From: Trissonchulus latispiculum | Taxonomy: Eukaryota; Nematoda; Enoplea; Enoplida; Ironidae | Direction of reading: 5' to 3' | Assembly: GCA_030248195.1 (NCBI GenBank) | Contig: JASAND010013057.1 | Location: 1-64,000, forward strand | DNA length: 64,000 bases | Part shown: positions 6,311 to 58,770 of the stretch, piece by piece | Numbering within the stretch: the stretch's first letter is position 1 | How the letters are laid out: every line of letters starts with the position of its first letter | Made by a program: the position numbers and the translations under genes | The notes under the pieces: model-generated | Databases searched by the model: none | The model's input: only the letters and a program-made list of their open reading frames with translations | Told to the model about the DNA's origin: nothing

Positions 6311-6898
6311 CACCCGATTGCACCAAGTCGGACTAAGTTAACTCGGTGTTAGCTATTCTGCAGCTGAGCTATTGCTTAGGGTTAAAGTTAGACCGTTGCA
6401 CCAACTTAGGTCTTGTCAAGAATAACAAACCCTAAGCTTCAGCGCAGGGTTACCTTTAACCAATTAGACTCGTTTCTTTAGCCAATGCATCAAATCATCA
6501 TCTGTCAAGGTTAGCTCACGACTAATTTATCCTAAAAGTTAGCTCCGAGCTAATATTAAATTTCCTTAACTCTGAGCTGAGGCTATGACTGAAGTAGTGG
6601 ATCGAATCTCGCGAGGAACATTCAAAACTAAAGTGCGAAAATCTTTTGTAAAAGCTACGAAACATGTATAAACAATAGTTTGAACAGCCAGTGACGATCT
6701 TTTCCGAAAAAACTAAAGCTGAAATCTTATAAATTGAGTTAGTCCTCAGTTAATCTGAACAGGAATCAGGATTAAGTTTCCGCCGCTAAGGACCAAGTTA
6801 GTTCGAAGTTAACCTCGAGGTTAACTTAACCTGATTTGGTGCAACGGATTAAACTGAGAATTATCACCGAGCTAACCGTCATTGGTGCAATCCGGGTG
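6311..6898. mobile_element. MITE with CACCCG...CGGGTG ends and 3-bp target duplication
   Basis: 588-bp element. Left terminus CACCCGATTGCACCAA and right terminus TTGGTGCAATCCGGGTG are inverted repeats differing by one base insertion. They are flanked by ATA on both sides (6308-6310 and 6899-6901). A second, inner inverted pair (CCGTTGCACCAA near 6392 and TTGGTGCAACGG near 6836) suggests a nested or duplicated terminus. Three-base duplications are typical of PIF/Harbinger elements, hence the inferred class. There is no coding capacity. Confidence 0.65.
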
Positions 6899-7091
6899 AT
6901 AGTATTACCCATACGATTTGGAACACTTTTCAAGAACCTGAACATATCTAAAGGTTTTCTCTTTAACTAAGTTTTCCCAAAAAAATTAGCCTGCGGTTAC
7001 AAGTCCGATTAAAGTCCTTTGTAACTGTGAACATTTAGTTCTTGTGTTCATGACTATTTCATCACTATAATTTAATACTTTTTGTTGCAGG

Positions 7092-23458: not shown

Positions 23459-37166
<13,708 letters not shown>

Positions 37167-37261
37167 CTAAAACAGCAAATACTGCGGACAAATACTGGCA
37201 TATATGGTGTAATATAAGAAATTAAATTGTCACTTCAGCACCTGAGACCCGAAAAATTCGG

Positions 37262-37333
37262 GCCTCGGGTGGGACTCCAACCCACGACTTTCGGATGAAC
37301 GCTCCGACGCTCTGCCAACTGAGCTACCAACGC
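37262..37333 (-). mobile_element. tRNA-like sequence (pseudo-tRNA or SINE head)
   Basis: The minus strand folds into a fair cloverleaf: acceptor GCGTTGG/CCGAGGC (one mismatch), D-arm GCTC/GAGC, anticodon stem TCGGA/TCCGA and T-arm GTGGG/CCCAC. Position 33 is C rather than U and the T loop is TTGGAGT rather than TTCGANT, so a functional tRNA (nominal anticodon GTT) is unlikely. A hairpin follows. A tRNA-derived repeat is the better reading. Confidence 0.5.
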
Positions 37334-38449: not shown

Positions 38450-39228
38450 TGTAATGTGTGAGTTGTGATGTGTGAGTTGTGTGTATTTTTTAGTGAGTCT
38501 ATGTGAATGTGAGATTTTAGTAAGAGTGGTAATTTTAGTGTGAAATGTGTCTTGTGTGAAATTGTGTAGATTTGTATTGAAATTTGTGTGAAATCTAATA
38601 TCTGCTATATTAAAACGCGATATGTTTTATTCAGCCCACTTAGCGACTAGGGGTGTGCTATTGTGTTTTAATTTTGGTTAATTGGTAACTAATATTGCTG
38701 TTTATTTTAGAAAGGGGTTTGTTATGTTATGTCATATAGTTTAGCCAGCCGCGACGGCTTAGGGAATATTATTTGAGATAGTGGTTTTCGGAATGGTTTA
38801 AATAATTTCTGGGTCGAATCTGTGTACGTAAATTGTCCTGTAACTGTACCTAAATTCTATTCATGTCCTGTTTAACTGTAGTATTTCTTAGAATGTATAC
38901 TTGTTTGAATTTTCCCTGTTTCCGTAAGCCTTATTGATGAATGTTCTCCTATACTCGGTAGGTAGGATTTGAGTCCATTCCAATTTTAGGTAGGCTAATT
39001 ATTTACTGAGCGTGTACTTAATTTATTCAAGGTTCTTGCTATAGTCAAAAGTCAGACATTTATTAGTCCCTTAGTCAGTCTTATTTAGCCTTCAGTCAGT
39101 CGTAGCTTATTCTTGGCGAGATCCTGCCCAGGTCGATTGGAACATAAGTCTCCTCCAGGTTCGTCGTTTCCATACGCGTACAGTTTCCACCCGTAAAGTT
39201 TGGCTAGCTATACCCTTCCAGCTTTACA
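38450..39228 (+). repeat. 5' LTR (779 bp)
   Basis: Starts TGTAATGTGTGAG, ends AGCTTTACA. Lacks two segments present in the 3' LTR: 289 bp (3' LTR 57661-57949) at the point after GCGACTAG (38650), and about 125 bp (58247-58373) near 38954. An extra T lies in the early T-run. Confidence 0.9.
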
Positions 39229-39457: not shown

Positions 39458-42013
39458 ATGTCCGTACAACATTCGCCAGTGAAAACGACTAAGGCTTCAA
39501 CTAAGCCGGCCGATACGGCCTCTTCAAGCACGGCCACGGATAACGGGCCTGTGATCCCAGACGGCTTTGCGCGCCTGTTTCCCCAACCAGCCTTGAGCAA
39601 GCATTCCTCTACCCAATCCTCGGCAAGCCAGGCATCGGCGGGCCCTGCTTCTACAAGCGCTACGCTTAGTAGACCGTATTTGCGATCGGACTCGGCTAAA
39701 AATAAAGCCTCCAAAAGGGAGGAACTACTGGAAGAAATTACGGACCGGGGTCAGGAGGACCAACAAGAGGACGAGGCCTCACAGAAGACCGACGAATTCC
39801 TGTCACCTACTGATCAGGGCGAATTTATTGAAGAAGAATGGGATGAACAGGCAAGCCTCAGAGATCAATTGGAATTTCTTCGCCTCAAATTGGCTCGGAT
39901 TGATTCAACTCTCCGGAACAGAGAGTCCGACAAGGAACCGTTAGAAGAGCCCGTGCCAGGTATTTCTGATGTTTCGGACCTGCGAACATTTATTAATCAA
40001 CTGGAACTGAATTTATTCCGGCAGCGACCACGGTTGGGGTCGGATAGCTCTCTTGTGCGTAGGCAACTCGGAGCTAAGCCATTTCCTCCGTTTACCCGCT
40101 CTAAGCCGCGACGGCTAGAGGGGGACGGATCTCTACGACAACAGGGGTTAGCCGGCCCTAGTGAACCAGCGGTTTCAGGCCCACGTTTCCGCTCGACAGC
40201 TCATATTGACCTTACACGGTCAAAAAGCCCGAAACGGGCTAGCAGTAGTCAACGGCCGGACGGCGGCGATCCAGAACCAGAACCGGATCGGAAACCGAAA
40301 GTGCGTGGACCAATGGACGCGTGGGTGGTCCCGTTACGGGACCAACCCACCGTGCCCGCCCGGCACCAGTCCCAGGCGCCGGACACTGCCGGCCTCTTTC
40401 AAGTAAGGGGCCTGACCGAACAGGAGTATGGCGTGATCAGAGGCCTGCTTACAGCATGGATAGCGGAGATCCCGCAAGAAACATGGGAGGCACTCGAGCA
40501 GAATTTTCCTCGAGTTTGTATGGAGCTACTGCGTATGTGGCCCAATCCAAGTATGGACCCGGATGCAGGGGCTCCCCCGTTCCAAATGGGGCAGTCTAGG
40601 CCAGCTCGGCAGTCGAGTCCAGAGCCGGTCCGTAGCCGCAGAGGGAGCCAGCAGAGGGTTCCACCACTTGTAGATTTGGATTCATCTGATGATCAGGTGA
40701 GAGAATCGCCGGTGGCGCAACCCCGTCGGCGCCGAGAGGATATGCGGCGGTCTAGAACCCCATCACGGGCTATCCATCTCCATCACCAGTGCGCAGAACG
40801 CCTAGCCCTAGACGCTATTCGCGGGACCGGGATCATCCTGCCTCTCGGCGAGAGCGGTCGCAACGACCACGTCCTTCAGAGCAGCGAGAACCCTCTTCAT
40901 ACGAGAGTCTTAAACATCTGGGCGAATATTTGAAGGGCTTTAAGGGGGTTAAACTCTTTCAAGGTTCACAGAGCAGCATCAAGTTCACTAGTTGGTTGGC
41001 GAATTTCGAAACCACGGTAAAGGTTCATGATGTGCCTGCAGCTATGAAGTATAGAAATCTATGGACCTTACATGATGACAAGGTCAAAGAGTCTATGACT
41101 CCATGTCCACCTGATACCTTCGAGGACCTAGTGACTAGGATCCGACAGCTGCATGAACCCTTACCCGTTACCACGGAACAATATGCAGAGCAATTTTATA
41201 GCCGGATGCAGGAACCTCGAGAAAAGCCACATGACTATATGGCAGCGCTGCGCTTGCTAGCGGTGCAAGCCTTCCCATTCGAACCTGGTTTTGACCGGGA
41301 AAAGAAGGTGGTGGCTCAGTTCAAAAGAAGCCTGAAAGCGGATTTGCGCTCTAGAATGGCGGCCCCACTGGCCGACATCCAATTCTGGCCCCATGTGCGG
41401 GAGAACGACTTGATAACTCGGGCTCTACATATTGTGGAGTCAGTACAGGTAGAACTAGATAAATAACAGGCTGTTATTGTCTTTAGTGCCCAGAGTCAGG
41501 GACCACGAGGCTATAACGCTACGCAGGGGCGACCACAGCAGGACCAGCAGCGGCCTCAACAGCAGAGCCAGAATCAGAACCAGAATCGTAACCAGGGTTA
41601 CCAACATAATGACGAACGACCACTACCACGCCAGCCTATGGGCAGGTGTTGGTACTGTGGCCTGGTCGGTCATAGGCAACAACAGTGCCCGGATTACCTG
41701 CAATACCTGAATCAAAATTATCAGGGCCAGCAGCAGGCTAGGGGTAATACCCATAGACAGTACCGGGACAGAGGTCAGGAGGGTGACCCCCCCTGCCCGG
41801 AGTCGCTACGACCAGAACCAGCGGAACCAAGGGCAAAGGAACCAGGACCAGCGTAACCAGCAGGAGCCGCAACGGCACCAAGACCAGCAGGATCAAAGTA
41901 ACCAACGACAACAACCGGTTAGACCCCGCTCAATTAGCAGGGGTTATGTAGGTCCACGCCGGTATGAAGGTTTCCCGGAACAGGGAAACGAGAATGCGGG
42001 GCGCGGGCAGTAG
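39458..42013 (+). pseudogene. gag: Gag (capsid/nucleocapsid) region, interrupted
   Basis: Starts at ATG 39458. The first frame (to 40933) is a disordered S/A/P-rich region, then an acidic stretch and a possible coiled coil (DEQASLRDQLEFLRLKLARI). The frame then changes between about 40745 and 40800 within an Arg/Ser-rich stretch. The next frame holds a retrotransposon capsid-type domain (about 40900-41460; YLKGFKGVKLFQGSQ...). An in-frame TAA at 41464 is followed in the same frame by a Q/N-rich linker and a CCHC zinc knuckle, CWYCGLVGHRQQQC (41644-41685). A C7 run at about 41787 marks another frame change to an R/Q-rich tail ending at 42013. Gag forms the particle and binds RNA. The lesions could be decay, assembly error or, at one site, programmed recoding. 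Confidence 0.75.
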
Positions 42014-42051: not shown

Positions 42052-43808
42052 GAAATGGTCTGTGGGTCCAAGCTTTTGTTGTTACTAATTCTAACCTTAC
42101 TAGCAAGCCCAATAATGAACCCTACTGGAACCACGGTGGTCTATGGAGTAGTGACTCGGAAAGTGAGTGCGAAGGAGGCGACCCCCTTCCCCCACGGAAC
42201 CCAGAACCTGTGTGCCTGTATTTGAAAACAGGCACGAACCAGGATGTGAACCCATGGAAATGTCCGTGTAAAACCTGCAAGCAAGTACGACGACGGGCGG
42301 AATGGTTCCCAGAAGAAGAAGTAGTCCTAGCAAATGGAGGCTTCCCGGACGGAGGAGATGTAGTTTACGATGGCGAAGGCAACCTTCGACCATATAAATA
42401 CTGGAACCGATGGCGTAAAGAAGTGAAACCTTTTGGTGATGGAGGGGCTTCCCAGCGTCCAGTCCCGTATAATAGGCGGTGGAAACGAGCACCGGGTACT
42501 GAATGGAATATGCTTACTACAGTGCGCAAAGCTATGAAGTGGCAAGAAAATTCTGCAGTCATGGCAGCACAGACTCGTGCCAGGCAACCTGGCGCGGGCA
42601 CAACTCGGAGACAAAGGAAAACATCTACCTCGAAGGAGGTGCAAACAGACCCCATCGATGTCATTAGGCCTTTACAACAATGGACGCCAACTCGGACAGA
42701 GAATCAATCGGGAGCCGGGGCTCACAGCACAAGCCCTGGGGAAAACCAGGCCCCTGTAAATGGGGAGCAAGCTAAAAGCCCTGGGGAAAACCAATCCTCG
42801 GGTACTGGGCTTTCAGCAGTAAGCACTGGGGAAACCCCAACGTCAGAACTGGCCGTCACTACTCAGGTGGTGCCGGAAACTCCCATCCCTACGAAGAAAC
42901 CGCCCAGCATTGTGGTTACTGGGGCGTCTCCACCCAAGCGGTCGAGTTCTCTGAAACCTTGGTCAGCAGCGAATAACCCTAGCCGGAGAGAGCTAACAGA
43001 AACGGACGTATCGGATGACGAATCGGGTATCTCGGATCTTACGTTAGCACCAGTTGACGTTCATAGGTCTGGAGCTACTCCAGTAACACCTCTGAAATTG
43101 CGCAAGGACACTCAAGGTGAGTGGGAACAGGTAGAAAAAGGGATGAAACACCCGAAAACACCGGCACAATCCGGTGTACCTACCCGTAACAGATTTGCCC
43201 TATTGGAAACTCCGGAGTATGCCATAATTCGACAGGGTTGGGCAACTGTCAACCAAGCTGTCCAACAAGCTCAGGTGGTTGCCCAGTCTATCGGCGAACA
43301 GATTCAGCAGCTGGCCGTTAATGTAATGTCCGTGACGGACCAGGTATGCCAGTCTACTCAGAGTTTTGAACAACTATTGGCCGAATTCGTACAGAAGGAT
43401 TACGAACGGACCCTAGAACTTCAACAGAAGGGAACCCTCCGTGAACCAGACCAGCCTATCTGGTCGGAGGACCCGCCGCAACCCCGCAAGGGTAGACGGG
43501 GAATTCGCCTAAACGACCCTAATGAGATCATTGTGCTGGATAGCTCACATGTAGACGAGGAACCGGCACTTGTGGCGCAGGAAGATACTCCCACTAATAT
43601 GGATGACACTACTGTACTACAACAGGACGAGGTAGTAGCAACCTCAGGAACGGCCGCTCCGTCTGGAAACCTATTGGAAGGCGGCACGGCTACCGCAAAT
43701 CAGCAAGAAGCGACTTCTACTGATATTTGGGACAAATACGGTATATGGGACTTAGAACAGCAGCTTCGTGCCGTCTTAACCCTGCTCAACGGGTCGAGTT
43801 TAACCTAG
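42052..43808 (+). CDS. Unrecognised ORF between Gag and protease
   Basis: An open frame of about 585 codons (the first 50 or so before the GTG at 42210 are also open and look coding). It has a small CPCKTC cysteine cluster near its start, then a basic region, a disordered S/T/P/G-rich middle with repeated SPGENQ phrases, a predicted coiled-coil-like stretch (about 43230-43420), and an acidic tail. No known domain. It lies between the zinc knuckle and the DTGA protease and runs into the protease frame through an overlap at 43727-43808, so it is probably the N-terminal part of Pol or a separate Gag-derived product. Confidence 0.5.
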
Positions 43809-44330: not shown

Positions 44331-45800
44331 AATCGTTTTAGTATAGCCGTGTGCTGTACGGTCTATTATTGTATGCGGGAAACGTGCAAATTCCCCCCTA
44401 GATCAGAAGTTATGGTACCGGTTCGTTGTTGGCTTGGGGGTGCTGTAAAACCAGCTATCAATCAGGCAGTCGTGTTCGAACCATCAGAGGAGGTCCTGGA
44501 TGACTATGAAGTTTACCCAGTGCCTGGGGTCTTGGAAGTATCTTCTCAGGTAAATTATATCAAGGTTTATAATCCATTGGACAGAATGGCTCAATTACCA
44601 AAGGGGCTACCCCTCGGCCAAGCGGAACCGGTCACTACGGTCACGGAACGACAAGGGTTTCGGTATGCTGCTGAGTTGGGTGTTAACTTCGCGCAAGTGC
44701 ACCCTCACCTGGCTAGTTGGGCGACCCATTCAGCCACCCGTATGAACGAGAAAGAATTGCGTCACGCTCTCGAAGAGGTCGAGAAACTGGAATCGTATCA
44801 CCCAGGTGACACGGTACCCATGGTTAATAGCGTGGGTAATGCAATACCAGTTCCAAGGTGGGTCGACCCCACAGTGTGCGTTGCCGAGGCTGACCAGAAC
44901 TGGGGATACGAGGAACCCTCAGCATTGACCGAAAAAGGCCTTCAGGCCTTTAATGATATGCACTATTCTGCGGATGAAATGACTTCACAGCCTATGCCAT
45001 CATTAGAGGAACGTCAACAATTTATTGATGAGAACGTGGATTTTGATTCTATGTTTCTTGATGACGAGGGTAAAGCGAAATTAAGAGATATATTGATCGA
45101 CTTTTATGATGTGGTGGCCAGACCGGGCAACCCGGGACGGACCAAAGTGGACCAACATGTGATTGATACTGGTAAGGAAGGGCCAGTTAAAGGTAGATCT
45201 TATCGATATAATCCCAAAGATAAAGCGGAAATCGAGAAGCATATACGGGCAATGTTGGATGAAGGGGTCTGTTCCCCCTCTACTAGTACTTGGTCCTCAC
45301 CATGCATCTTGGTCGGCAAGAAGGACGGGACCACACGTTTAGTCATTGATTATCGTCGGCTAAACAAAATCACAAAGAAGGATACCCGCTGCCCAAAATT
45401 GACGAAATTTTGGATCAACTCCAAGGGGCAGTGATATTCTCAACTATCGACCTAGCGGCTGGGTATTGGCAGGTTGAGGTCTACCCAGAACACAGGGAGA
45501 AAACGGCCTTCATGTCTCATATGGGCCTTTTCCACATGAATGCCATGCCGTTCGGGTTGTGCAACGCACCCGCAACGTTCCAACGTCTAATGGAAAAGGT
45601 TTTGACGGATTTGCCTGTTTATATTGACGATGTATTGATACCATCTACAGATCAAGAGGCCCATTTAACGATGATCAGGTTGACCCTGACTCGTTTGCGC
45701 GACAATGGATTACGCATCAAACTTAAGAAATGTTGTTTCGCTCGTGAATCAGTTCCCTTCCTGGGCCACTATGTGGGGCCGGAACGGCATTAGTGTGGAC
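44331..45800 (+). pseudogene. Ty3/gypsy-type reverse transcriptase
   Basis: The N-terminal RT motifs (WSSPCILVGKKDGTTRLVID, then YRRLNKITKKD) lie at 45289-45380. After a frame change near 45383 come PLPKIDEILDQL, motif A FSTIDLAAGYWQ, motif B FGLCNAPATFQRLM and motif C YIDD (about 45622). The residues normally found between the helix before motif C and YIDD are four to five short, pointing to a small in-frame deletion. Another frame change lies near 45775, just after PFLGHYVG. A roughly 300-residue region before the RT (44331-45100) has no recognised domain. The enzyme would copy the element RNA into DNA, but this copy cannot make it intact. Confidence 0.85.
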
Positions 45801-47768: not shown

Positions 47769-48880
47769 GCAACCTACAATGTACGTAATTCGCAGCACTA
47801 GTTTACGTAATAGGCCTTGTGTAATGCAAGGGCCCTTGCAATTGTATAATAATGTGTGTTAATTTTTTCTTTTAGGGACGTCCTATTTTTGTATTACCTA
47901 GGGCTTTATCCCTAACAATCGGTGTTGGCATTATTGGTGTTATCTAACCCTTTGAATAGGGCGGGGTTAAATTTCTTAAGGGGCCTCCTTTATGATTTAT
48001 TCTTTTCGGTGTAAAACGGGGTTTCCTTTTCCTATCTAGTTTTCTAATTCTTCATACTTATGGCTGTAAAATCTGGCCATAAGTTTTCTTTTTCTTAACT
48101 ACCCTAACAGGGGGATTCTTTCATTCTTTTCCAAAATTTACCTATGGGGGTCTTCTTTTAAATCAAAGGGATTGCCTTTCGTTGCAAATTGCTAAGGGGG
48201 CCCTATCATATCTTTCTGTACATATAGTGTATGCCTTAGTGTATACGCTGGGTGTGTGTGTGTATGTCTGCCTTTAACTTGGGTATGTGTAGTGTTCTTT
48301 CTTTTCTCCCTTTACGTAGGCTAACTATAGGTAGGTCACCCTCTCCTGTGTGTGTAGTTTTTCTTCTCCTCTTTCTATTTTTTCTATCACACTTATCATG
48401 CTTTCACCTTATGTTAGTTTTTGCACTTTTTTCTGAGGCTTATTTTAGATTCTAGTGGCTGCTTGAATGTTTGGTTGGGGGAATTCAGTGGACGGGCATA
48501 TGAGCCTGTCAGCTGGAACCTATTGAAATGGTGCCTAAACATGTGGGGATTTTTCTTACGGAACTTGGCTGCGGGAGGGCCACAATAAGGCTGCCTTGTT
48601 GTGCTCATCCGCCTGGTTCACTGAAGATTGGGTCATTAGTCTAGGCCAGCGCTTCCTTTACCACATTTTAACCGTGTGATGCTTTTATACTTTCAGATTT
48701 AATTCGTGTGTGCGATTTGATCAACTATATTACGATTGGTGCCTTATTCTACTGGAAGAATAACTTGGTGATTAGTACTGGGAATCACCTCATTTCATAT
48801 CGGACAATTACTTACAAGCTAACTGTTTGCGCCTACTAGAGCAACTTACGCTACTTTGATCCATCCGATTGCCCCGGTTT
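47769..48880 (+). other. Non-coding spacer of the LTR element with splice-acceptor-like sites
   Basis: 1.1 kb without a coding frame, T-rich. Two good acceptor-like strings occur, TGAGGCTTATTTTAG (ends about 48449) and TTTTATACTTTCAG (ends about 48700), 180-430 nt before the next ATG. They could serve a spliced subgenomic mRNA for the downstream ORF, as in env-bearing retroelements. There is also a short GT-repeat near 48251-48262. Confidence 0.45.
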
Positions 48881-51220
48881 ATGGGCAATCAATTCGCCTT
48901 TCGCGTTCAGAAAGACTTTCCAGAAAGACATTCTCCCGTTCCGCGAGACCCTGACCAACAGATGAAGGTCCTCCTGAAGCGGGCCGGTACTCCTGCCCTA
49001 CCTAGTCCAGCCTCAGTATTGTCTGACCCTGGCGATCAGCCTATCTTGCCCACCCCTCCACCCCCTCCAGTGAGCGAACCACAGCCTGGCCCGAGCCAGG
49101 CTACAATCAGTGCCAGTCGGTCTATCCAGAATTTACTAGATCCTACGACAAATCCTAGCCCTCTGACCAGAATCGTGACGGTTCCTGGTGGGCTCAATCT
49201 TCTAGGACTTGCGGCCTCGTCGGCATTACAACAGGAAGGGCAGCAACCAGCTGCGTCACCAGCCCAGATGGAAACTTCAGATAAGGAGGAAACCTCCTCC
49301 CAGCTTGAGCGCGACGCTAGAGCACGAGCAGGAGCCGATTACGAGGATGTGTCAGATGAGGAGAAGGAATCGGAAGATTTGTTTTCAGAGGAAAATCAGC
49401 CGGCTGATGGGGAGGATGATGCGGCCTCCGATGACATTCGCGTTCTGGAGGAAGTACAGGGAGACGCAGAACCAGTAGTGGCCCAACAACAAGGTATGGA
49501 TATTGATCAGGTAGTTGCTGCTGTGGCTAAGGCTGCCATCGCAGGGGGCTATATGGTACCACCGGCACAAGCGGGCGTGGTCCCTCCAGTCCCGCAGCTT
49601 CGCCCTATAGCGACGGAGCTGGACCGTTTGGACCCGTTTCGCAGGGAGCGAAACTACGAGCGACTCGAGGCCCATCTACGGGTGTATACGGACGCGCTGC
49701 TGCGTCATCGCCAGTTCGGCGTTGAGGCATTGGGAGAAGAGTATGAAACAGCAGCCCTAGCCTTGGGGACTATGCTGACGGAGCAATTGACGGGATTACC
49801 GGCACCTCGTCCGAATTTTGCTAACATTCGATTAAACGATAATGACGACGATAATACCTTCGTGATCGACTCACTGGGTCGCTTCTTCTATCTTCTCCCG
49901 GATTTGATCAGTCTTTTAGGTGAAGCCCCTCTTGTCGCCTTTGATGTGGAAGGGGGTAATGACATTCAGTTCGCAGTGCCACAGGATGGAACGATTACAA
50001 TGTTGCAGTTCATGGGCCCTGTAGGCCAGGTCTCAGGGTACCGCAGGCCGGTGACCTTTGTTATCATGGTAGCGTACATCTTAGCCCAGCTGAAGGATTT
50101 CGGACCGTTTCTCCAGCTGCTGGAGCTGTTAACGGATTCTAGTTTGCAAGCCCGTTGGGGTTCTGTGGATATTAAAGCTGATGCCTTACGCTTGGCACGG
50201 GCCTACGGCCTTCAGGGTTTGGAACATCGACTAGTAGAGGTCCAGGAATATTGGATCCACGCTTGGAATTTACGACGGTCCAGTCAATATCGAGACTTGA
50301 ACTACCAGAGCGACCTGCGACCACCTGACCCCTATGCGAGGGACCGCTATGGGTTTATCAATAGCACAGGCGCTGGCCTACGGAGGATGGCGGGTATTTG
50401 TTCCGTTGCCAACCCAAAGCTGAAGCGTTGCTGTACCCGGGGTATTCCTGTAGTCCCTCATGAAGGGGATGTGCGCTACGCATTAGCGGACGTGGACGCC
50501 ACCTATCACATACTACGCCTTATTCGGGAGTTATTGGATGAACGAGATAGTGAACTGGCAACTCAACTGTCTACACTCCACAATGCCTATGGACCGGAAG
50601 TGGAAGCGGCTTTGGAACACGAGCGGCGGAAAGGTCACGGCCCTCATGCTGGGGTACGGAACGTAACCCCACTTCAGGGTCGACCAACCCCGGACCAAGA
50701 ACAATTTCAGCAGATGATTCATCAGCGCCTGCTACCTACGGATGATGTCCCTGACGCGGACCTGCCACGACAGCGGCCGTTGTGGTCATTTAGCTTCCAT
50801 ATGGGACAGAATATCAATGTGGTTCACCCGCTGCGGGAAGCGATTTATCAACGATTTTTGGTTTTTATGCGAGCTTGGACCAGATGGCGATTTCAGCCGC
50901 GTGCACTACCGGCCATCGACTGGCGTCGGGTTAGGGTTTCGCAGGATGGCAGATACCACGCTATAGATCCAGAAAGGCCACAAGATCAGGTGGAATTACA
51001 ACCAAATGCGGAGTTAGTTGAACAGTTGCATGCGGCAGGAGCCCGGAGAGTTCAGGACTACATTCCATCGGATGGTGAAGGCTTCCCGGAAGAGGGCGAA
51101 ACTCCAGCCTCGGCTGCTTTGGTGGTGCCTGACCGCGACGGTAGGCACAAGGAAGTACAAATTGTTCCTCATAAACCGCCAGTGTCGAGACAGCGGGGAC
51201 CTCCTCGGCCACCCCATTGA
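48881..51220 (+). CDS. DEDDy 3'-5' exonuclease protein of the LTR element (ORF3a)
   Basis: Intact 779-codon ORF from ATG 48881. The N-terminal 330 residues are disordered: Pro-rich, then strongly acidic. Residues about 335-560 form an RNase D/EXD-WRN type exonuclease domain: Exo I VAFDVEG (Asp and Glu at about 355 and 357), the beta strand TITMLQF, Exo II VDIKADALRLARAYGLQ (Asp about 430), and Exo III YALADVDATYHI, giving YxxxD (Tyr about 533, Asp about 537). All five DEDDy residues are present. The C-terminal 200 residues are basic and unrecognised. It lies downstream of integrase, where env usually sits; the next frames continue without a real gap, so it was probably the start of a longer polyprotein. 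Likely activity is 3'-5' trimming of RNA or DNA; its role in the element is unknown. I know of no standard Ty3/gypsy lineage with this domain. Confidence 0.85.
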   Translation: MGNQFAFRVQKDFPERHSPVPRDPDQQMKVLLKRAGTPALPSPASVLSDPGDQPILPTPPPPPVSEPQPGPSQATISASRSIQNLLDPTTNPSPLTRIVTVPGGLNLLGLAASSALQQEGQQPAASPAQMETSDKEETSSQLERDARARAGADYEDVSDEEKESEDLFSEENQPADGEDDAASDDIRVLEEVQGDAEPVVAQQQGMDIDQVVAAVAKAAIAGGYMVPPAQAGVVPPVPQLRPIATELDRLDPFRRERNYERLEAHLRVYTDALLRHRQFGVEALGEEYETAALALGTMLTEQLTGLPAPRPNFANIRLNDNDDDNTFVIDSLGRFFYLLPDLISLLGEAPLVAFDVEGGNDIQFAVPQDGTITMLQFMGPVGQVSGYRRPVTFVIMVAYILAQLKDFGPFLQLLELLTDSSLQARWGSVDIKADALRLARAYGLQGLEHRLVEVQEYWIHAWNLRRSSQYRDLNYQSDLRPPDPYARDRYGFINSTGAGLRRMAGICSVANPKLKRCCTRGIPVVPHEGDVRYALADVDATYHILRLIRELLDERDSELATQLSTLHNAYGPEVEAALEHERRKGHGPHAGVRNVTPLQGRPTPDQEQFQQMIHQRLLPTDDVPDADLPRQRPLWSFSFHMGQNINVVHPLREAIYQRFLVFMRAWTRWRFQPRALPAIDWRRVRVSQDGRYHAIDPERPQDQVELQPNAELVEQLHAAGARRVQDYIPSDGEGFPEEGETPASAALVVPDRDGRHKEVQIVPHKPPVSRQRGPPRPPH

Positions 51221-52548
51221 ACCAGCCTGGTACCAGTCAGCAACGAGACGCGCGACGCGATTCCAGGCAGAGGCAGACTTCGCCGGAGTTCTTGCGGTTA
51301 CCGAAATCCCCTCCCAGATCCCGACCCCCACAACAGGTGTATACCAGTAAACGGTATTACCAACAATCGGCTCCACCTACGTCTCGGCAGCAACCGCGAG
51401 ACCTGTCACAATCGGACGCGTCTAAAACACGTAGCCAGCCAGCAGTGACTGCTGAGAGCCGGTTCGGCGTGAAGCCCTTGCCGACGTGGAGGGACCCAGC
51501 AGAGTTGTATAGGAGAGCTCAAGCGCAGCCGCAGCCCCAACCTGGCCCGGTGTGGGCACATCCAGATCATGAATATATGCCACCTATCCCGGACGAGTAT
51601 CTAAGACAACAGGAGCGACAAGATCGACAAGAGGGCGTGACGCCCTCTACCTCCCAACAAGCCCGTGAATCAGAGGCAACACCACCTAAAAGCCACAGGG
51701 CGGTTACATCCGAAGAAGAGCGAGAACTGCGGGAACTCATGAAGTGCTTCCCACATATCCAGGACCCTATGGACCTGCTTGATGTCGACCCTAGTATAAT
51801 GGAAGCAGTCCGGATAGTGCTGAGAGAGGAGCGAGCCAAGGCTTCAGCCGTGACGGCACCGCCAGGCCTAACCCAGGTTCCTGCTCCGCCAGGAATTCAA
51901 GCTGCCCCAATAACAGTGTCGGCACCCATTGCCGGACTTTCGGAACTGCAGGCCCAAGTTATGGCTGAGCCACAAGGAGCTGCTCCTATGGAGGTTCAGC
52001 AGATTCAACAACCAAGTGGTCTGGAACAACCGCTCTTACAATTGATGCCATCAGCAGAAGTTTTGCACCAGATCGGATTGACTCCGGCGATTTATGAAAC
52101 TATATCTCCTCAAGTGTGGCCTATGTTCAGTCATTTTGTGCAGGCATTGACTCATTTGACGGCTAATGGCCGTATTGGACCTTCACGCCATATCTTCAAT
52201 CCTGTGGCCATGTACCATCTAGCCCCAACACCTAACCCACAACCCACGGGACCTAATGAGAGATTCATGGTGCCGGAATATGTGGCAGTGATGGACACAC
52301 GACAAACAGCAGAGACGCGTCGAACTGGGACGACCCAGGTTCGACAATTTATTGTGGTTCCTAAGTTGGATCGCACAGCGGCAGGCTTTGATCCGTCAGC
52401 CTATCTGATCGCCATCGACCAAGGGCTACCAGTGCACTGGCAGGTCATGGAGGCTTACCTCCCTGGTTTGCCGTGGTTCCGTCAGGTTATGATGTGGCGC
52501 GACGCCAATAATGTGGTCCATATGTCCATATTACAGTCAATCCTTTAA
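51217..52548 (+). pseudogene. ORF3b, unrecognised continuation of the third polyprotein
   Basis: 443 codons opening directly in the overlap with the exonuclease ORF, without an ATG (TTG at 51217). A one-base shift in the CCCCATTG stretch near 51214 would link the two frames. Content: Q/R/P-rich disordered part, an acidic-basic region (EEERELRELMKCFPHIQDP), and a C-terminal part (about 52030-52548) with aromatic residues. No known domain, signal peptide or membrane helix. Confidence 0.55.
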
Positions 52549-54116
52549 TACAAGGGGATGAATATTTTAGCCAGGTGACGATGCCTTTGGTGTTGTCCCC
52601 TGAAGATCAACAGGAAGCAGAGCGTGTTCGTGACCAATTAGACATCTTGATGATTCCACCTGGTCCTACGCTGCACCAGCGAGGCCAAATTTACCGGGGG
52701 TCTCGGGCTGCTGGCATGCGTATGCCCTTGTCTGCAGCAGTTCCGTGGGGAGTGCGCACTAACTACGCCCCTCGACCACAGACGCAGTATATGGCTGCGT
52801 GTGTTGCGACTACAATCTCATCTGCTTCAGTCATGATGGCTCCACCAATTCCGGCCGCCCCAGTTTTTCGACCTGTCCCATCTCAAGGTACGGCCCGTAC
52901 AACGCCTGTGACTACAGCCTCGTCCAATTACCCGCCACGGTTCGGAGCGCCTCCGACCGGACCCTTACCCCCTAGAAGGGAGGAAAGACGGGACAGTTCT
53001 ACATCATCTCGGGCATCTGGATATGCAGGGCCACCACCTAAGAAATGGGCGCAGGACCGTGACGGTCGCGGAGCCCTGGGCGATGATTATGGTGCTTCAG
53101 CATCTAGAGATGCAGGGTATCAGCGGAGAGATAGGTGGGACTCACGTGGTTCCGACTACTATACCTGTCGAGATGACGTGGGACATGACTCTCGGTCCAG
53201 AGACAGAAAACGACGAGATGAGGGAGATCAAAGACCATCAACCAGTTACCAAGAATGGAGGCCGCTGCGGCCCACCCAGTTTCAAGGACCCCAGTTTAAA
53301 AGCAGAGGTCGTCCTGCCGAACCGCCCTCAAGGGAACCTAGATCGGTTTTCTCACCACGGACAGCAATGGCCCAGGGACCCCAGATCCCTGATGATCAGC
53401 GACCCGGTACTAGCGGATACTGGAAGGCCTCCTATAATTGGAAACCAGCGTCTGCCCCTGTAGAGTACCGACGTCGTGAAGGTGACCAGTATGTTCCGTA
53501 CCGTTCCCAATCATCTACCCAACAGCACCAGGTCCGGGTCTACCCCGAGGAGCCACCGCGTAAGAGGAAAATGGAGCCATTACCACCTTTTGGAGTTTCT
53601 GCTACATACGAACAAGTTCGGGACGCTCAGCGTAAACGGACAGCAGGAAATTTTCCGTCATTCCGCGAAATCCTTCATGAACAACATATTATCGCAAAAC
53701 GCGATCAGTTTGGTAAGAATTTATTGCATGACCATAGCGATCCGGTCTATCCACCATTCCAGTTGCAGCAGCCATACCCGGAACAGGTTGGCCACCTTGC
53801 AACCCCCGCACCGGCGGTCTACTGGCAAGATTTTTGGGGCAGATGGCAGGGGCAGCAGCTACCTGTCGCTGTAGGCAGAGAAACGCCCCATCCAGCGCTG
53901 GTTGCTTTCCGTCAGGTGGTTTTGCAATGGTTTGTTAACGTGAGTCAAACACCGGTGACCATGTCTATGGAACTTTTGGACAAGCTGAAACAGATGTTTC
54001 GGGAAGATCACCCCGACATGTATCAGTACTTTGAGACAGGCGATCGTCGCACGCCGGATCGCTCCGGGTTTATTGCAACTTGGAAGTTCAAAAACAATCG
54101 TTCGTTCACGCTATGA
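52549..54116 (+). pseudogene. ORF3c, RS/RG-rich unrecognised region
   Basis: Open from about 52530 in a new frame (first ATG 52581). The middle (about 52970-53560) is rich in R, S, D, G and P (RRDRWDSRGSDYY, RSRDRKRRDEG), typical of disordered RNA-binding segments. The end (53620-54100) is more ordered-looking. A frame change lies between about 54080 and 54110, leading to the next ORF. No domain assignable. Confidence 0.55.
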
Positions 54117-55281
54117 AGACCCAGAACCAGAGGTTGAGATCTTTAAAGTGGTGAACTCCGCTGTGTGGGGTCACGCGGAGCTGCTCCGACGGTGTGTCCC
54201 GGAACTGACACCCTATGCACATGTCTTTTCCCGCCCAGCTTCGAGAGGTTTTCGAGATGTGTACCGCGCTGCGGCTCAGGAACTGGACCGAATGGAAGCG
54301 GTGCGGAGAGCTTTCTGGTACTGGTACCAACCACCCGTGCAGGGTATTCGAGCTGTGGCTCCAAGGGAATTTCTGGTTCCGTGTTTCCGCCATCATTGTA
54401 GGAACTCGTACATGCATACCGTCGAAGGCGGATTGCGTACAGCTCAGAAACCTGGCATTGTCTTTCCTATGCCGGAATACATTTATCAATATCGAAAAAG
54501 CGATTTCGCGTGTCATGCGGAGGCGCTACGCTATATTACTCTTGAGCCTAACCGCTTGGGCACCGAGATCAAACTGGGGGTGCGACACCGCCTAGAGGTG
54601 GAACCGTATTCCTTTGCAGTCGATTCTTGGCAGGGCGGCTATCAGGTGCGAACTATGTGCCGCATTCATTGGGATACCTTCTACCAGTCAGAGGAGCTCC
54701 GGGAATACATGTTGCGTCATCCAGCGGCCCTCTACGACGAAGCCTCAGGCGAGACGTTTTGGGGCTTTCGCCCGGCTTTGCCGGCACAGGTTATTGTGCG
54801 TGGAGTGGAAGATCTCCAACATGAACAGTTTGATCAATGGTTTCAGCGTGAGGCATGGTTTAGCGGAGCGTCTATCCATGGTACCTATTGGACCGTGACC
54901 CTCCTCTGGTTTACCCAGGGAGGACCCCAGGACTTCTACTCGGATTGGCAATCTCCAACTCCGCTTTCATAGGCGGAATATGACGCGTTCATTCAGGTCA
55001 TCCGGCGACGGATTGAACATGCACGGGAGAATTGGATGAACGGCAGAATGGCCCCGCCATTCTTCGCAGTGGATAACCCGCCCACGGAACTGCGAGCGGC
55101 TGCGCTGCGCATGCCGGTGAATCGCACAGGAGAATACATTGATGGTTTGGCACCACCTGGACAGGAGAACAACGTCTTCTGCCCGTGTATATGCGTCGCT
55201 ATCTTTGATCCTTCCGCCCCTCATCGTGCTGGCTCCCGCCTCCCCATCGACCGCCAGAGCCCGGTTTGGAACCGTTTCTAA
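54090..55281 (+). pseudogene. ORF3d, aromatic-rich C-terminal part of the third polyprotein
   Basis: The frame runs to a TAG at 54970-54972, then continues in the same frame to TAA-type stop at 55279-55281; the TAG is thus probably a nonsense change. The protein is folded-looking and rich in W, Y, F and R (for example RRAFWYWYQPPVQGIRA; FWGFRPALPAQVI). No transmembrane helix, so not a classical envelope. Unrecognised family. Confidence 0.55.
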
Positions 55282-57460
55282 ACCGTTCCCCCGCCCCTAG
55301 TTACTACCAGCGACTGGTGTAACCTTACGTAATTAGCTCAACTTACCGCGACGGTGTAGTTGTAGCTTAATGTCCCTTTCATTATCATTGACGGTGGATG
55401 TAACATCATAACGGCGGAGGTATCATTATGACGGCGGAGGTATCATTATGACGGCGGATGTATCATTATGACGGCGGATGTATCATACTAACGGCGGAGG
55501 TCTTGTATCATATCATATCATTCTATCATTCCATCAATCCAGCGACGGTGCTATTTACTATGTCATTCCATTTCATTGCCTTATTCCATCATTGCCATTC
55601 CTATTGACCTGAATCTTAATTACTGACTACCTCTATTTGGATTACTACCCCTGATTTGATTGCTCAATTATGAAGACTGCCTTACGATGACTCTTTCCAG
55701 AATTCTAACCCCGATTGTGACGACCCGATGAAGACTAATTGCTCGATCTATGCCTTATCCCCGATCTGTGCCATTCCAGCGATATAGACGCTCTACTGTA
55801 TATAGATCTATCCCCGATGAAGACGATTCCCATTTGGTGACTTTGAAACTAGTTTCTTTTGTGCTTTAACTATAGATGTACGTATTTTATTTCTTGTGCC
55901 GTATTTTTGGTGGTCTTAACATTTAAAAACATAACCTTTTTCCGAGCTTTATTCTAAATTTTAGAATTTCTCTATTTACCTACTTACATTTTACCATTTT
56001 CTTGAGCTTTCTTATTTAAAACATTAGAATCTCTAATCAATTATTTAACTTTTTACCATTTTCATGGAGCTTTATTTTAAAAATTAACCAAAAATTCTGT
56101 GTATTTTGTAGTGATTTTGACTGTGTTCCATGCATAATATTGCTTTTTATATGTGATTTGCTGTACAGTTTTACATGCCATGTTCGTATTCTGTTCGCTT
56201 TAATTATGTAACCAAAGTTTTGTTCAAAAGTTTTTACTAAAACCGGGTTTATTCTTTTCTTGAAGCTTTCATTTTCATATTTTTTATTAACGGGTTTGAT
56301 TGCGGGTTTTGTGTCCTTTAACGAGTATTTCGTAACCTGACGCAACGTCAGAAGATGTGTGACGCACCAGCCATGTCCCACTTTATGTCCTTTACTGCCG
56401 CCACATTTTTATCAAAATTATTCTCTTTTACCTACATCTTTTAGTTGTCCCAACGGTTCCTGTCCATGTTTGTACCTGTCAGTCGATTTTTGTAAAAATT
56501 TTCTTGGTAAAATGTCAGTTTTGTTTCCCACTCCAGAGCGCCAAAGTAGTTCCCGAATAATATGCCCCTATTCCATTGTAGGGCCTGCATGCGCGGTTGG
56601 GAGGATCTTCTCCAAAATTCTTATTTTAAGGGACTTTCTACTAATATTTTAACCAGTGTTTCGCGTTTTTAGTAACTCTAAGACTTCATTTTAACCCCCT
56701 CCTAATTTAATTTACTTTATTTTTATAAGTACCACGAGGGTATTTGGGGACTCTCCGTACCCTTTTGGTCCTTTTTATACATGCTTAAGCATGTTTAGGG
56801 TTACCTTGTAACTCTTTTAATTTAATTTAATACTTATATTTTACTTAAAGACTCCACAAACTTACTCCTACTTACACGCGAAACACTGGGATTAAATTCA
56901 TTTCATTACCTATTGCTCTAAATTATTTTATTAATTATCTTTCGTCTTTCTAATTTTGCAGGAGATCCGCAGGGCACTGAGTTAGCGATGCGAGGCTAGG
57001 CCCACCCACCCACCCAGCCGGAGATGGCGCACCCTACATTTGGCGGGAGGTTACCTCCGTACCTTAGTTTGAATAGACCCAGACGAAGCTGACATTTCGG
57101 TTCTTATTTTGTTTATTTGATTTCCTAGCAATGCAGGTACGAGATCCCCACCGCTGCGGCTGGAGGATCATGGGTCGCCCATTCACGCACCGTCCCGTGG
57201 CATTAATAGGGCAGTTGTCCATGCGTGTTTTTATGGCTGGTCTTCACTAGTCTTTCGTCGCCATGTCATTTTTATTATGTTCCGTACTTAGTCAAGTTTA
57301 GTTTACTTTTGTCTTTTGGTATTTCTTTTTGTATCGTGACTTATGTACTGAGACCCATTTACCAAAATTCAGTCAAAAATTTTCACTGTTGGGTAAATTT
57401 CTTCCTTCTTTTTGGTTGATGTGTCCCTCGCGGGAGCTCGGGCGGTAAGCCCTGGGGAGA
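55282..57460 (+). other. 3' untranslated region of the LTR element
   Basis: 2.2 kb non-coding sequence, AT-rich in the middle, ending in GGTAAGCCCTGGGGAGA immediately before the 3' LTR; the GGGGAGA is a short polypurine-tract candidate. It contains a tandem repeat at 55395-55500. Confidence 0.6.
55390..55503 (+). repeat. 20-bp tandem repeat (GACGGCGGAGGTATCATTAT)
   Basis: About five and a half copies of a 20-bp unit, with G/T alternation at GGCGGAGG/GGCGGATG, inside the 3' untranslated region of the LTR element. Confidence 0.8.
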
Positions 57461-58652
57461 TGTAATGTGTGAGTTGTGATGTGTGAGTTGTGTGTATTTT
57501 TAGTGAGTCTATGTGAATGTGAGATTTTAGTAAGAGTGGTAATTTTAGTGTGAAATGTGTCTTGTGTGAAATTGTGTAGATTTGTATTGAAATTTGTGTG
57601 AAATCTAATATCTGCTATGTTAAAACGCGATATGTTTTATTCAGCCCACTTAGCGACTAGGTGGCGCTGCTGAGCTAGCCTTGTTGAAGCGCATAGTCGG
57701 GTCTGCAAGAGGGTCTCAAATTCAGCCAATCAAAATTCACTAGGCATCTCTCTCAGCCTTCACTTTAAAACTAGTCAGTCTCGTTTAAAATTTCTTAGCG
57801 TGCGGCCGTCTCTAGCTCTGTGGCCTTATTTTCAAGTGTGCTCTTTTTGCCTTTCACCTTGGACCCTCTTGGTAACGTAAGTTATTGATTGTTTTTACTT
57901 TCTATTGCAGGCTCCGAGGCGACCTCGTGGGTCAATCTAAATTTATTAGGGGTGTGCTATTGTGTTTTAATTTTGGTTAATTGGTAACTAATATTGCTGT
58001 TTATTTTAGAAAGGGGTTTGTTGTGTTATGTCATATAGTTTAGTCAGCCGCGACGGCTTAGGGAATATTATTTGAGATATTGGTTTTCGGAAGGGTTTAA
58101 ATAATTTCTGGGTTGAATCTGTGCACGTAAATTGTCCTGTAACTGTATCTAAATTCTATTCATGTCCTGTTTAACTGTAGTATTTCTTAGAATGTATACT
58201 TGTTTGCATTTTCCCTGTTTCTGTAAGCCTTATTGATGAATGTTCTAGTGTCAAAATTCCTTATACCAGTTTGTGTAATTTTCGGGAGTCTCTCCCTTTG
58301 CCTGTTTCTTTATTAAATGCGGTCTCAGTAGCTGAGCCGTTAGGGTGTCTTTATTTAGGTTTTGTTAGAATTGTATACTCGGTAGGTAGGATTTGAGTCC
58401 ATTCCAATTTTAGGTAGGCTAATTATTTACTGAGCGTGTACTTAATTTATTCAAGGTTCTTGCTATAGTCAAAAGTCAGACATTTATTAGTCCCTTAGTC
58501 AGTCTTATTTAGCCTTCAGTCAGTCGTAGCTTATTCTTGGCGAGATCCTGCCCAGGTCGACTGGAACATAAGTCTCCTCCAGGTTCGTCGTTTCCATACG
58601 CGTACAGTTTCCACCCGTAAAGTTTGGCTAGCTATACCATTCCAGCTTTACA
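57461..58652 (+). repeat. 3' LTR (1192 bp)
   Basis: Same ends as the 5' LTR but 413 bp longer because of two segments: 57661-57949 (289 bp, begins GT and ends AG) and 58247-58373 (127 bp, replaced by CC in the 5' LTR). Inside the first is a GTAAGT...TTTCTATTGCAG pair 34 nt apart, too short for a normal intron. Confidence 0.9.
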
Positions 58653-58770
58653 CCAGGGCCGGGATCGAACCGCCGAGTTTTGAATTAGGAGTAGAACGCT
58701 CTACCGCAGCGCCACTGCCACACCCCCGGACAGCGAGACTAGATTATTACACTGATTTCAACATTTCAAA
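58653..58770 (-). mobile_element. SINE family B, right part, split by the LTR element
   Basis: Minus strand carries box A TGGCGCTGCGGTAGAGCG and box B CGGTTCGATCCCGG. On the plus strand it is followed by GCGAGACTAGATTATTACACTG, matching the flank of the intact copy at 30.4 kb (GAGACTAGTTTGTTACGCTG). Confidence 0.7.

What the first reader, a model, noticed from the sequence alone, without database searches (positions are those of the whole stretch)
48881..51220. LTR retrotransposon with its own DEDDy 3'-5' exonuclease in the env position
Seen: an intact 779-codon ORF between integrase and the 3' LTR with all DEDDy motifs (FDVEG, VDIKADAL, YALADVD). Known: Ty3/gypsy elements carry PR-RT-RH-INT and sometimes env; RNase D/EXD/WRN-type exonucleases are host RNA- or DNA-trimming enzymes. 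I recall no named gypsy lineage with this domain. Inference: the element captured a host EXD-like exonuclease. Possible roles are removing RNA ends, proofreading or repair of reverse-transcription products, or interference with small-RNA defence (EXD1 is linked to piRNA biogenesis). It is also the only long ORF in the element without a lesion.
Basis: partly seen in the sequence, partly recalled or inferred. Interest (0 to 1): 0.88.

Follow-up and report, generated by a model that had tools for sequence, protein, structure and literature searches.

The report
Retrotransposon ORF3 pairing exonuclease with NADAR
A 20-kb mobile element that copies itself through RNA carries an extra protein joining a DNA/RNA-end-trimming enzyme to an enzyme type that removes ADP-ribose from nucleic acids, and other elements in the same genome carry the same pair, which hints at a defence the elements have to get around.

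Summary
The window holds a 20.2-kb Ty3/gypsy-type element (38450-58652; LTRs 98.5% identical). The "intact 779-codon ORF" is residues 1-882 (about 100 missing) of a ~2,240-residue ORF3, broken in this copy; other copies keep frames of 2,112-2,250 codons, in five lineages 27-56% identical. Asp-Glu-Asp-Tyr-Asp is invariant in 31 of 31 aligned rows; Foldseek's best matches are RNase D, Nibbler, WRN and EXD2; dN/dS of the domain is 0-0.07.

ORF3 ends in a divergent NADAR domain (ADP-ribosyl-guanine hydrolase family) with the Glu/Lys pair kept. Two other gypsy-type elements of the genome carry exonuclease-NADAR after an integrase.

Published before: DEDDy ORF3 in bdelloid Juno/Vesta and Terminons; NADAR in Ectocarpus Gypsy and oyster Tx1. 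Searches of an open-access library found no paper with the pair. Best reading: an auxiliary protein that trims 3' ends and removes ADP-ribose from the element's RNA/cDNA. Architecture well supported; mechanism inferred.

The parts
38450..39228 (+). 5' LTR (TGTAATG...CTTTACA)
   Evidence: 766 of 778 aligned bases identical to the 3' LTR
39458..41856 (+). gag region in several broken frames, ending in a CCHC zinc knuckle (41467-41856)
   Evidence: ORFs; zf-CCHC E 0.0075, below the cut-off; gag also upstream of ORF3 in 4 of 6 loci examined
42054..43808 (+). 584-aa frame of unknown function between gag and protease
   Evidence: no Pfam; relatives in 5 of 6 upstream loci at 30-88% identity
43724..44170 (+). 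aspartic protease
   Evidence: Asp_protease_2 E 0.00067, below the cut-off
45350..45793 (+). reverse transcriptase core
   Evidence: RVT_1 88.1 bits
46215..47768 (+). RNase H end and integrase; this copy is about 41 residues shorter in the integrase than other copies
   Evidence: RT_RNaseH 38.2, Integrase_H2C2 57.9 bits; 558 versus 517 residues
48881..51220 (+). N-terminal part of ORF3 (the reported 779-codon ORF), residues 1-882 of ~2,240 with about 100 missing near the N-terminus; starts MGN
49847..50569 (+). DEDDy 3'-5' exonuclease domain (D at 49943, E 49949, D 50180, Y 50477, D 50489)
51175..52548 (+). ORF3 continued in another frame; runs into the conserved domain of unknown function (about L013 residues 1170-1400)
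52512..54116 (+). ORF3 continued in another frame
53989..54972 (+). ORF3 C-terminal part with the NADAR domain (Pfam match 54418-54768, below the cut-off)
54973..55281 (+). last stretch of ORF3 after an in-frame stop in this copy
55389..55508 (+). array of ~20-bp repeats downstream of ORF3
   Evidence: D9
57461..58652 (+). 3' LTR, with two segments absent from the 5' LTR (57658-57946; most of 58247-58373)

Best explanation
The window carries one decayed copy of a ~20-kb Ty3/gypsy-type LTR retrotransposon clade whose third ORF encodes a ~2,200-residue auxiliary protein: an N-terminus beginning MGN, a DEDDy 3'-5' exonuclease domain, a conserved domain of unknown function and a C-terminal NADAR domain. 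SHOWN: architecture, conservation of the exonuclease active site and of the NADAR Glu/Lys pair, purifying selection among long-frame copies, and recurrence of the exonuclease-NADAR pair in two other gypsy-type elements of the same genome. INFERRED: ORF3 is made from a spliced mRNA and travels with the element's ribonucleoprotein. There NADAR removes ADP-ribose from guanines in the element's RNA or cDNA, which would otherwise stop reverse transcription, and the exonuclease trims the 3' end of RNA or nascent cDNA so that copying can go on. It would be an anti-restriction and quality-control factor rather than an envelope.
For: Exonuclease: D82, E84, D161, Y260, D264 invariant in 31/31 rows. PF01612 is the only Pfam family matched, by 13 of 31 members. 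hhalign aligns motifs I-III with RNase D-type exonucleases at score 43.3 versus at most 23.3 in 100 column shuffles. AlphaFold pTM 0.81; Foldseek's top hits are RNase D, Nibbler, WRN and EXD2. NADAR: 9 of 10 C-termini match PF08719, best E 1.2e-5; hhalign 48.1 versus at most 25.5 in 100 shuffles; an E-x6-K pair is kept in 7 of 7 rows including E. coli YbiA and by spacing and place corresponds to E88/K95 of E. coli C7 NADAR (my mapping; residues from PMC11543638). Selection: dN/dS 0.04-0.07 in exo (0 in the lineage C pair) and 0.03-0.16 in NADAR, against up to 0.44 in linkers. Recurrence: L057 and C6677 (L060/L062) encode exo + NADAR after an integrase, and 4 of 4 fetched long-frame NADAR loci (of 15 such rows) are relatives of the L057 protein. 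Substrate: NADARs reverse guanosine ADP-ribosylation in DNA and RNA (passages of PMC11543638, PMC11125620, PMC11833690). Splicing: a C/T-AG ends 3 nt before the ORF3 ATG in 12 of 14 copies of three lineages.
Against: No enzymatic or expression data. Pfam scores of ORF3 are below curated cut-offs for both domains, and four full-length ORF3s scanned whole gave no Pfam match at all. The exonuclease model has pLDDT 76, and Foldseek TM-scores by query are 0.29-0.48 with rmsd 4.2-22.9 over the 23 best hits. One YbiA-type catalytic Glu of the last strand appears as V in lineage A and L in L057 (my reading). In the exo-NADAR fusions, L064 has lost motif II Asp and motif III Tyr and L067 the Tyr, so the exonuclease may be non-catalytic in some relatives. 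The serine of the recalled myristoylation consensus is Ala in 3 of 14 copies and in the window, and the window copy lacks the AG before the ATG. Copies for dN/dS and A1 were picked for long or unbroken frames, which lowers dN/dS and favours conservation. Substrate and interplay of the domains are inferred.
Confidence: 0.45

Rival explanations
1. The exonuclease acts against small-RNA silencing: it trims or destroys piRNAs or their precursors (Nibbler/EXD1-like), and NADAR has a separate job.
For: Nibbler EXO domains and chains of the Egalitarian-BicD complex are among the best fold matches; EXD1 and Maelstrom in piRNA biogenesis are discussed in PMC5408684 (passages).
Against: Does not explain why NADAR is fused or linked in several elements; WRN exonuclease matches as well as Nibbler.
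Confidence: 0.2
2. The domain is a non-catalytic RNA-binding platform (EXD1- or Egalitarian-like) that packages or localises element RNA.
For: Egalitarian-BicD complex chains in the fold hits (that these are the Egalitarian chains is my inference); two of six exo-NADAR fusions examined lack one or two active-site residues.
Against: All five active-site residues invariant in 31 of 31 ORF3 rows with dN/dS 0-0.07.
Confidence: 0.12
3. NADAR acts on small ADP-ribose derivatives or damaged nucleotides (as YbiA does on riboflavin intermediates), not on the element's nucleic acid.
For: Ribosyl N-glycosidase activity on riboflavin intermediates and the soluble-ADPr proposal for viral NADARs (passages of PMC9503650; YbiA annotated N-glycosidase).
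Against: Physical coupling to a nucleic-acid exonuclease domain in several elements; the NADARs tested in PMC11833690 reversed guanosine-ADPr RNA (passage).
Confidence: 0.15
4. ORF3 is an envelope or structural surrogate whose enzyme domains are incidental.
For: Env position; possible membrane targeting through an MGN start (consensus recalled).
Against: No 19-residue window above Kyte-Doolittle 1.6 in 4 of 5 lineage representatives; the enzyme domains and one unknown domain are among the most constrained parts.
Confidence: 0.06
5. A one-off insertion of a host exonuclease gene into this copy.
For: None found.
Against: 123 matches in the genome in several lineages, with pol genes upstream in 5 of 6 loci examined.
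Confidence: 0.01

Closest known systems
Bdelloid rotifer LTR elements Juno and Vesta with DEDDy ORF3 (Rodriguez et al. 2017, PMC5408684; passages read)
   Same: LTR retrotransposon with a DEDDy exonuclease ORF after pol; active-site residues described as kept (motif DEDD changed to DEED there)
   Different: No NADAR mentioned in the main text (0 occurrences); there intragenomic evolution showed no significant departure from neutrality, here dN/dS is 0-0.07 among long-frame copies.
Terminons (giant Athena PLE elements; PMC6431247, passages read)
   Same: Giant retroelements with DEDDy exonuclease among several accessory ORFs
   Different: Penelope-like RT; no NADAR mentioned in that paper (0 occurrences)
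NADAR-bearing Ectocarpus Gypsy families and Crassostrea Tx1 LINEs (PMC12477816, passages read)
   Same: NADAR domain in a retrotransposon
   Different: [quoted passage not shown] 'exonuclease' does not occur in that main text
E. coli YbiA / E. coli C7 NADAR (PMC11543638, passages read)
   Same: E-x6-K pair and other motifs
   Different: Stand-alone bacterial enzymes; ORF3 NADAR is highly divergent with an insertion and a C-terminal extension
Burro giant gypsy-like elements of planarians (PMC6431247, passages read)
   Same: Giant gypsy-like elements with captured accessory domains
   Different: Other domains (BCL2, BIR, MATH etc.), in one giant polyprotein ORF plus accessory ORFs

Membership tests
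Ty3/gypsy (Metaviridae-type) LTR retrotransposon | Two LTRs with TG...CA ends | tested here: met
Ty3/gypsy (Metaviridae-type) LTR retrotransposon | Order PR-RT-RNase H-INT | tested here: met
Ty3/gypsy (Metaviridae-type) LTR retrotransposon | tRNA primer-binding site and target-site duplication | tested here: inconclusive
   no TGG-type site seen next to the 5' LTR and no self-priming match at 10-13 nt; flanks TCTAG / CCAGG do not match
Ty3/gypsy (Metaviridae-type) LTR retrotransposon | RT phylogeny with named gypsy clades | not tested
   no named RT set was at hand
DEDDy 3'-5' exonuclease (PF01612 / RNase D-like) | D-x-E, motif II D, Y-x3-D | tested here: met
   31 of 31 rows
DEDDy 3'-5' exonuclease (PF01612 / RNase D-like) | Fold of RNase D / WRN / EXD2 | tested here: met
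   (E 4.5e-5 to 7.1e-4; TM by target 0.18-0.71, by query 0.29-0.48 over the 23 hits at E<=0.001)
DEDDy 3'-5' exonuclease (PF01612 / RNase D-like) | Pfam score over curated cut-off | tested here: not met
   13 of 31 match, best E 0.03; in L057, L058 and L060 the cut-off is met
DEDDy 3'-5' exonuclease (PF01612 / RNase D-like) | Metal-dependent 3'-5' exonuclease activity | not testable with these tools
   needs bench assay
NADAR (PF08719) | Catalytic E-x6-K pair | tested here: met
   7 of 7 rows
NADAR (PF08719) | Pfam score over curated cut-off | tested here: not met
   26 versus 35.1 bits for the best ORF3 row; met in L057, L062, L064-L067
NADAR (PF08719) | NADAR fold | not tested
   structure job for A2 never accepted
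Juno/Vesta-type DEDDy ORF3 elements | Common descent of the ORF3 exonuclease | not tested
   Juno/Vesta sequences were not looked up; no tool here names them

The most novel reading that the evidence does not exclude
Exonuclease-NADAR is a recurrent retroelement module that undoes a host nucleic-acid ADP-ribosylation defence: the host marks guanines in element RNA or cDNA, NADAR strips the mark and the DEDDy exonuclease resets the 3' end so reverse transcription can resume. This would imply an ADP-ribosylation-based anti-transposon immunity in animals; I know of no description of one.
Probability: 0.22. Interest if true: 0.92.

Novelty: new variant of a known kind. Interest (0 to 1): 0.72.

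Why it matters
The accessory enzymes of retrotransposons that I met in print are described singly, and in the bdelloid case without evidence of selection. Here two enzyme domains of known chemistry occur together, in the same order, in gypsy-type elements as far apart as 33% integrase identity, and in the window's clade both are under strong purifying selection. A nucleic-acid exonuclease coupled to a family that removes ADP-ribose from guanines points to a definite, testable substrate and perhaps to a host defence that puts the mark there. The roles of NADARs found across animals are called unclear in PMC11125620 (passages; C. elegans SNA-3 in trans-splicing is one lead); mobile elements may be a major home for them.

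Tried and rejected
Rejected: one-off host-gene insertion; intact single-gene ORF; env. Led nowhere: homologue searches of exo, NADAR ORF and the L057 protein in the protein database (none); PDB by sequence (none; the A1 profile gave 9 rows, all hemocyanin or geminin, best whole-sequence E 1e-4 from summed short stretches, none significant alone, taken as chance; the A2 profile gave 4 unrelated rows at E 0.53-2.1); IMG/VR scan (none confirmed); PHROGs (weak hits only, mostly in the acidic N-terminal stretch); primer-binding site and target-site duplication (none clear). One lineage E upstream locus (L055) showed only a protease match and is counted as a miss. I did not identify the host species; its assembly is unnamed. 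No tree of exonuclease or RT sequences was made. Whether L064-L067 lie in elements with an integrase was not looked at.

Limits: copies were chosen by eye for long or unbroken frames. A1 holds the window plus 30 of the 40 ORF3 loci fetched; L049 (short) and L011, L012, L015, L017, L021, L022, L024, L028, L029 were left out, mostly as near relatives of rows kept. A2 holds 10 of the 20 loci. dN/dS used 17 of 20; L012, L028, L029 were left out. The MGN/AG check used 14 of 20, those whose frame contains MGN. Genome counts are lower bounds by the tool's own statement.
Full report
1. What is in the window. A pair of long terminal repeats bounds an element at 38450-58652: 5' LTR 38450-39228, 3' LTR 57461-58652, 766 of 778 aligned bases identical (98.5%), the 3' copy carrying two extra segments. 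No target-site duplication and no clear primer-binding site were found. Inside, on the + strand, lie gag frames with a CCHC knuckle, a 584-aa frame, protease, RT, RNase H and integrase, spread over several frames. The reported ORF (48860-51220; ATG 48881) lies about 1.1 kb after the integrase, and the 3' LTR starts another 6.2 kb beyond its end.

2. The ORF is a fragment. In the window's own assembly (G000, 733.8 Mb) a translated search with the exonuclease stretch gave 123 matches, falling by eye into groups of about 82-100, 57-66, 50-57, 40-50 and 33-36% identity to the query; the frame holding it is 2,112-2,250 codons long in a number of copies and 2,367 in one. Twenty ORF3 loci were fetched and their longest frames read. 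Between the five lineages the proteins are 27-56% identical. Mapping one of them (L030, 2,241 residues) on the window shows the reported ORF to be residues 1-882 less about 100 near the start, continued in window frames 51175-52548, 52512-54116 and 53989-54972 with an in-frame stop before the last hundred residues.

3. The exonuclease is real. The window protein alone matches nothing in Pfam, PDB sequences or the protein database. An alignment of 31 rows (A1, the window and 30 copies chosen for unbroken frames) has the DEDDy residues invariant in 31 of 31. Scanned singly, 13 of 31 match PF01612, best E 0.03, below the curated cut-off; no other family appears. A profile comparison with four exonuclease sequences (two from other elements of this genome, an Rrp6/RNase D-like protein of the assembly, E. 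coli RNase D) scored 43.3 with motifs I, II and III aligned; 100 column-shuffled versions reached at most 23.3 and the reversed one 11.4. AlphaFold2 gave mean pLDDT 76.0, pTM 0.81. Foldseek against the PDB returned 23 chains at E<=0.001: T. brucei and E. coli RNase D, Nibbler, WRN, EXD2, four chains of Egalitarian-BicD complexes and one chain of a nuclear exosome (that the last two kinds are Egalitarian and Rrp6 is my inference). TM-scores are moderate (0.29-0.48 by query length) and rmsd runs from 4.2 to 22.9.

4. A second enzyme domain. The C-terminal frame of the window matches NADAR at E 0.002, below the cut-off. Of ten C-termini from five lineages, 9 match NADAR, best E 1.2e-5, again below the cut-off. 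Four whole ORF3 proteins scanned at full length gave nothing and two of a further three long frames gave NADAR. The profile comparison with an element NADAR plus E. coli YbiA scored 48.1 against a shuffle maximum of 25.5 in 100. An E-x6-K pair is kept in 7 of 7 rows; by spacing and place I take it to be E88/K95 of E. coli C7 NADAR, reported as needed for guanine de-ADP-ribosylation (PMC11543638, passages). I could not fold this domain.

5. It is a constant part of the element. Six stretches upstream of ORF3 were examined: in five, one from each lineage, protease, RT, RNase H and integrase related to the window's precede ORF3, with gag as well in four; the sixth showed only a protease match. 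Among 17 ORF3s with long frames, dN/dS within lineages is 0.04-0.07 in the exonuclease (0 in the lineage C pair), 0.04-0.07 in a middle domain of unknown function, 0.03-0.16 in NADAR and up to 0.44 in linkers; choosing long frames biases this downward. In the 14 of 20 copies whose frame contains an MGN start (lineages A, B, D), a C/T-AG ends exactly 3 nt before the ATG in 12, which looks like a splice acceptor; the copies are related, so these are not 12 independent events, and the window copy lacks the AG. MGNxxS fits the recalled N-myristoylation consensus in 11 of 14; 3 copies and the window have Ala.

6. The pair recurs. A search of G000 with PF01612 gave 13 matches, six of them with near-equal scores; three of the six were fetched and are alike. 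One of these (L057) lies in another gypsy-type element: integrase, then bZIP-like and kinase-like ORFs, then a 752-aa ORF with PF01612 (28.9 bits, cut-off 23.6) and NADAR (119.7 bits, cut-off 35.1). A third (C6677; L063, L060, L062) has RNase H and integrase, then PF01612 (28.6 bits) and NADAR (116.1 bits). Integrases of these two are 60% identical; one from the window's lineage is 33% identical to that of C6677. A PF08719 search of G000 scored 150 of 2,478 candidates, all 150 over the cut-off. Fifteen of the 150 rows have frames of 552 codons or more; I fetched 4 of those 15 and all 4 are relatives of the L057 protein in both exonuclease and NADAR parts. Two keep all five exonuclease residues, L067 lacks the Tyr, and L064 lacks motif II Asp and the Tyr. 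Only L065 of these four shows PF01612, at 22.1 bits, just below the cut-off.

7. How it probably works. NADARs reverse ADP-ribosylation of guanine bases in DNA and RNA and did not act on phosphate ends in the assays reported (PMC11833690, PMC11543638, PMC11125620; passages). DEDDy enzymes trim 3' ends of RNA or ssDNA (PMC5408684, passage). Joined in one protein of an element that must be reverse-transcribed, the simplest joint role is nucleic-acid clean-up: taking ADP-ribose off guanines of the element's RNA or cDNA and trimming 3' ends. That the host makes such marks is not known here. Rivals are piRNA interference, a non-catalytic RNA-binding role, and hydrolysis of small ADP-ribose compounds.

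8. What is known. DEDDy ORF3s in bdelloid Juno/Vesta and Terminons (PMC5408684, PMC6431247; passages) predate this. [quoted passage not shown] NADAR is reported in Ectocarpus Gypsy Pol and oyster Tx1 ORF1 (PMC12477816; passages). I found no paper on the pair: 'retrotransposon' with 'NADAR' held 104 papers, 20 listed and one of those opened (the word also begins author names); 'NADAR domain' with 'retrotransposon' gave 1 paper, the same one; NADAR with exonuclease and transposable element gave 0. The library is open-access only. So the exonuclease alone is known; the coupled module, its recurrence and the selection on it are what I would call new.

Noticed in passing
G000: NADAR is very abundant in this genome: 2,478 first-look candidates, 150 scored and all 150 over the cut-off, 135 of them in frames of 140-296 codons, so there are many other, probably repeat-borne, NADARs.
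   Followed up: partly
L069:747-1271 and 1321-2199 (+): A NADAR ORF directly followed by a YqaJ / viral alkaline exonuclease-like ORF: a different nuclease family next to NADAR.
   Followed up: no
L068:169-693 and 671-1210 (-): A NADAR ORF whose frame overlaps that of a TATA-binding-protein-like ORF (PF00352, 125.9 bits).
   Followed up: no
L057:2361-3452, 6567-7775, 1437-2012 (+): Two protein-kinase-like ORFs (67.9 and 86.9 bits) and a bZIP-like ORF beside exo-NADAR, downstream of a gypsy-type integrase.
   Followed up: partly
window 42054-43808: Conserved 584-aa frame of unknown function between gag and protease, with relatives in all five lineages (5 of 6 loci).
   Followed up: partly
ORF3 residues ~1170-1400 (L013 numbering): Unknown domain with dN/dS among the lowest of ORF3 (0.04-0.07).
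   Followed up: no
window 35033-36696: Inverted-repeat element: three arm pairs, 84-97% complementary, about 1.25-1.5 kb apart.
   Followed up: no
window 37260-37333 (-), 58653-58715, 30340-30402: tRNA-Asn match, and two 63-nt stretches 76% alike that look tRNA-derived, one abutting the 3' LTR end.
   Followed up: no
window about 32100-34000: Long AGT-type microsatellite tract with strong GC skew, 0.60 over 32001-34000.
   Followed up: no
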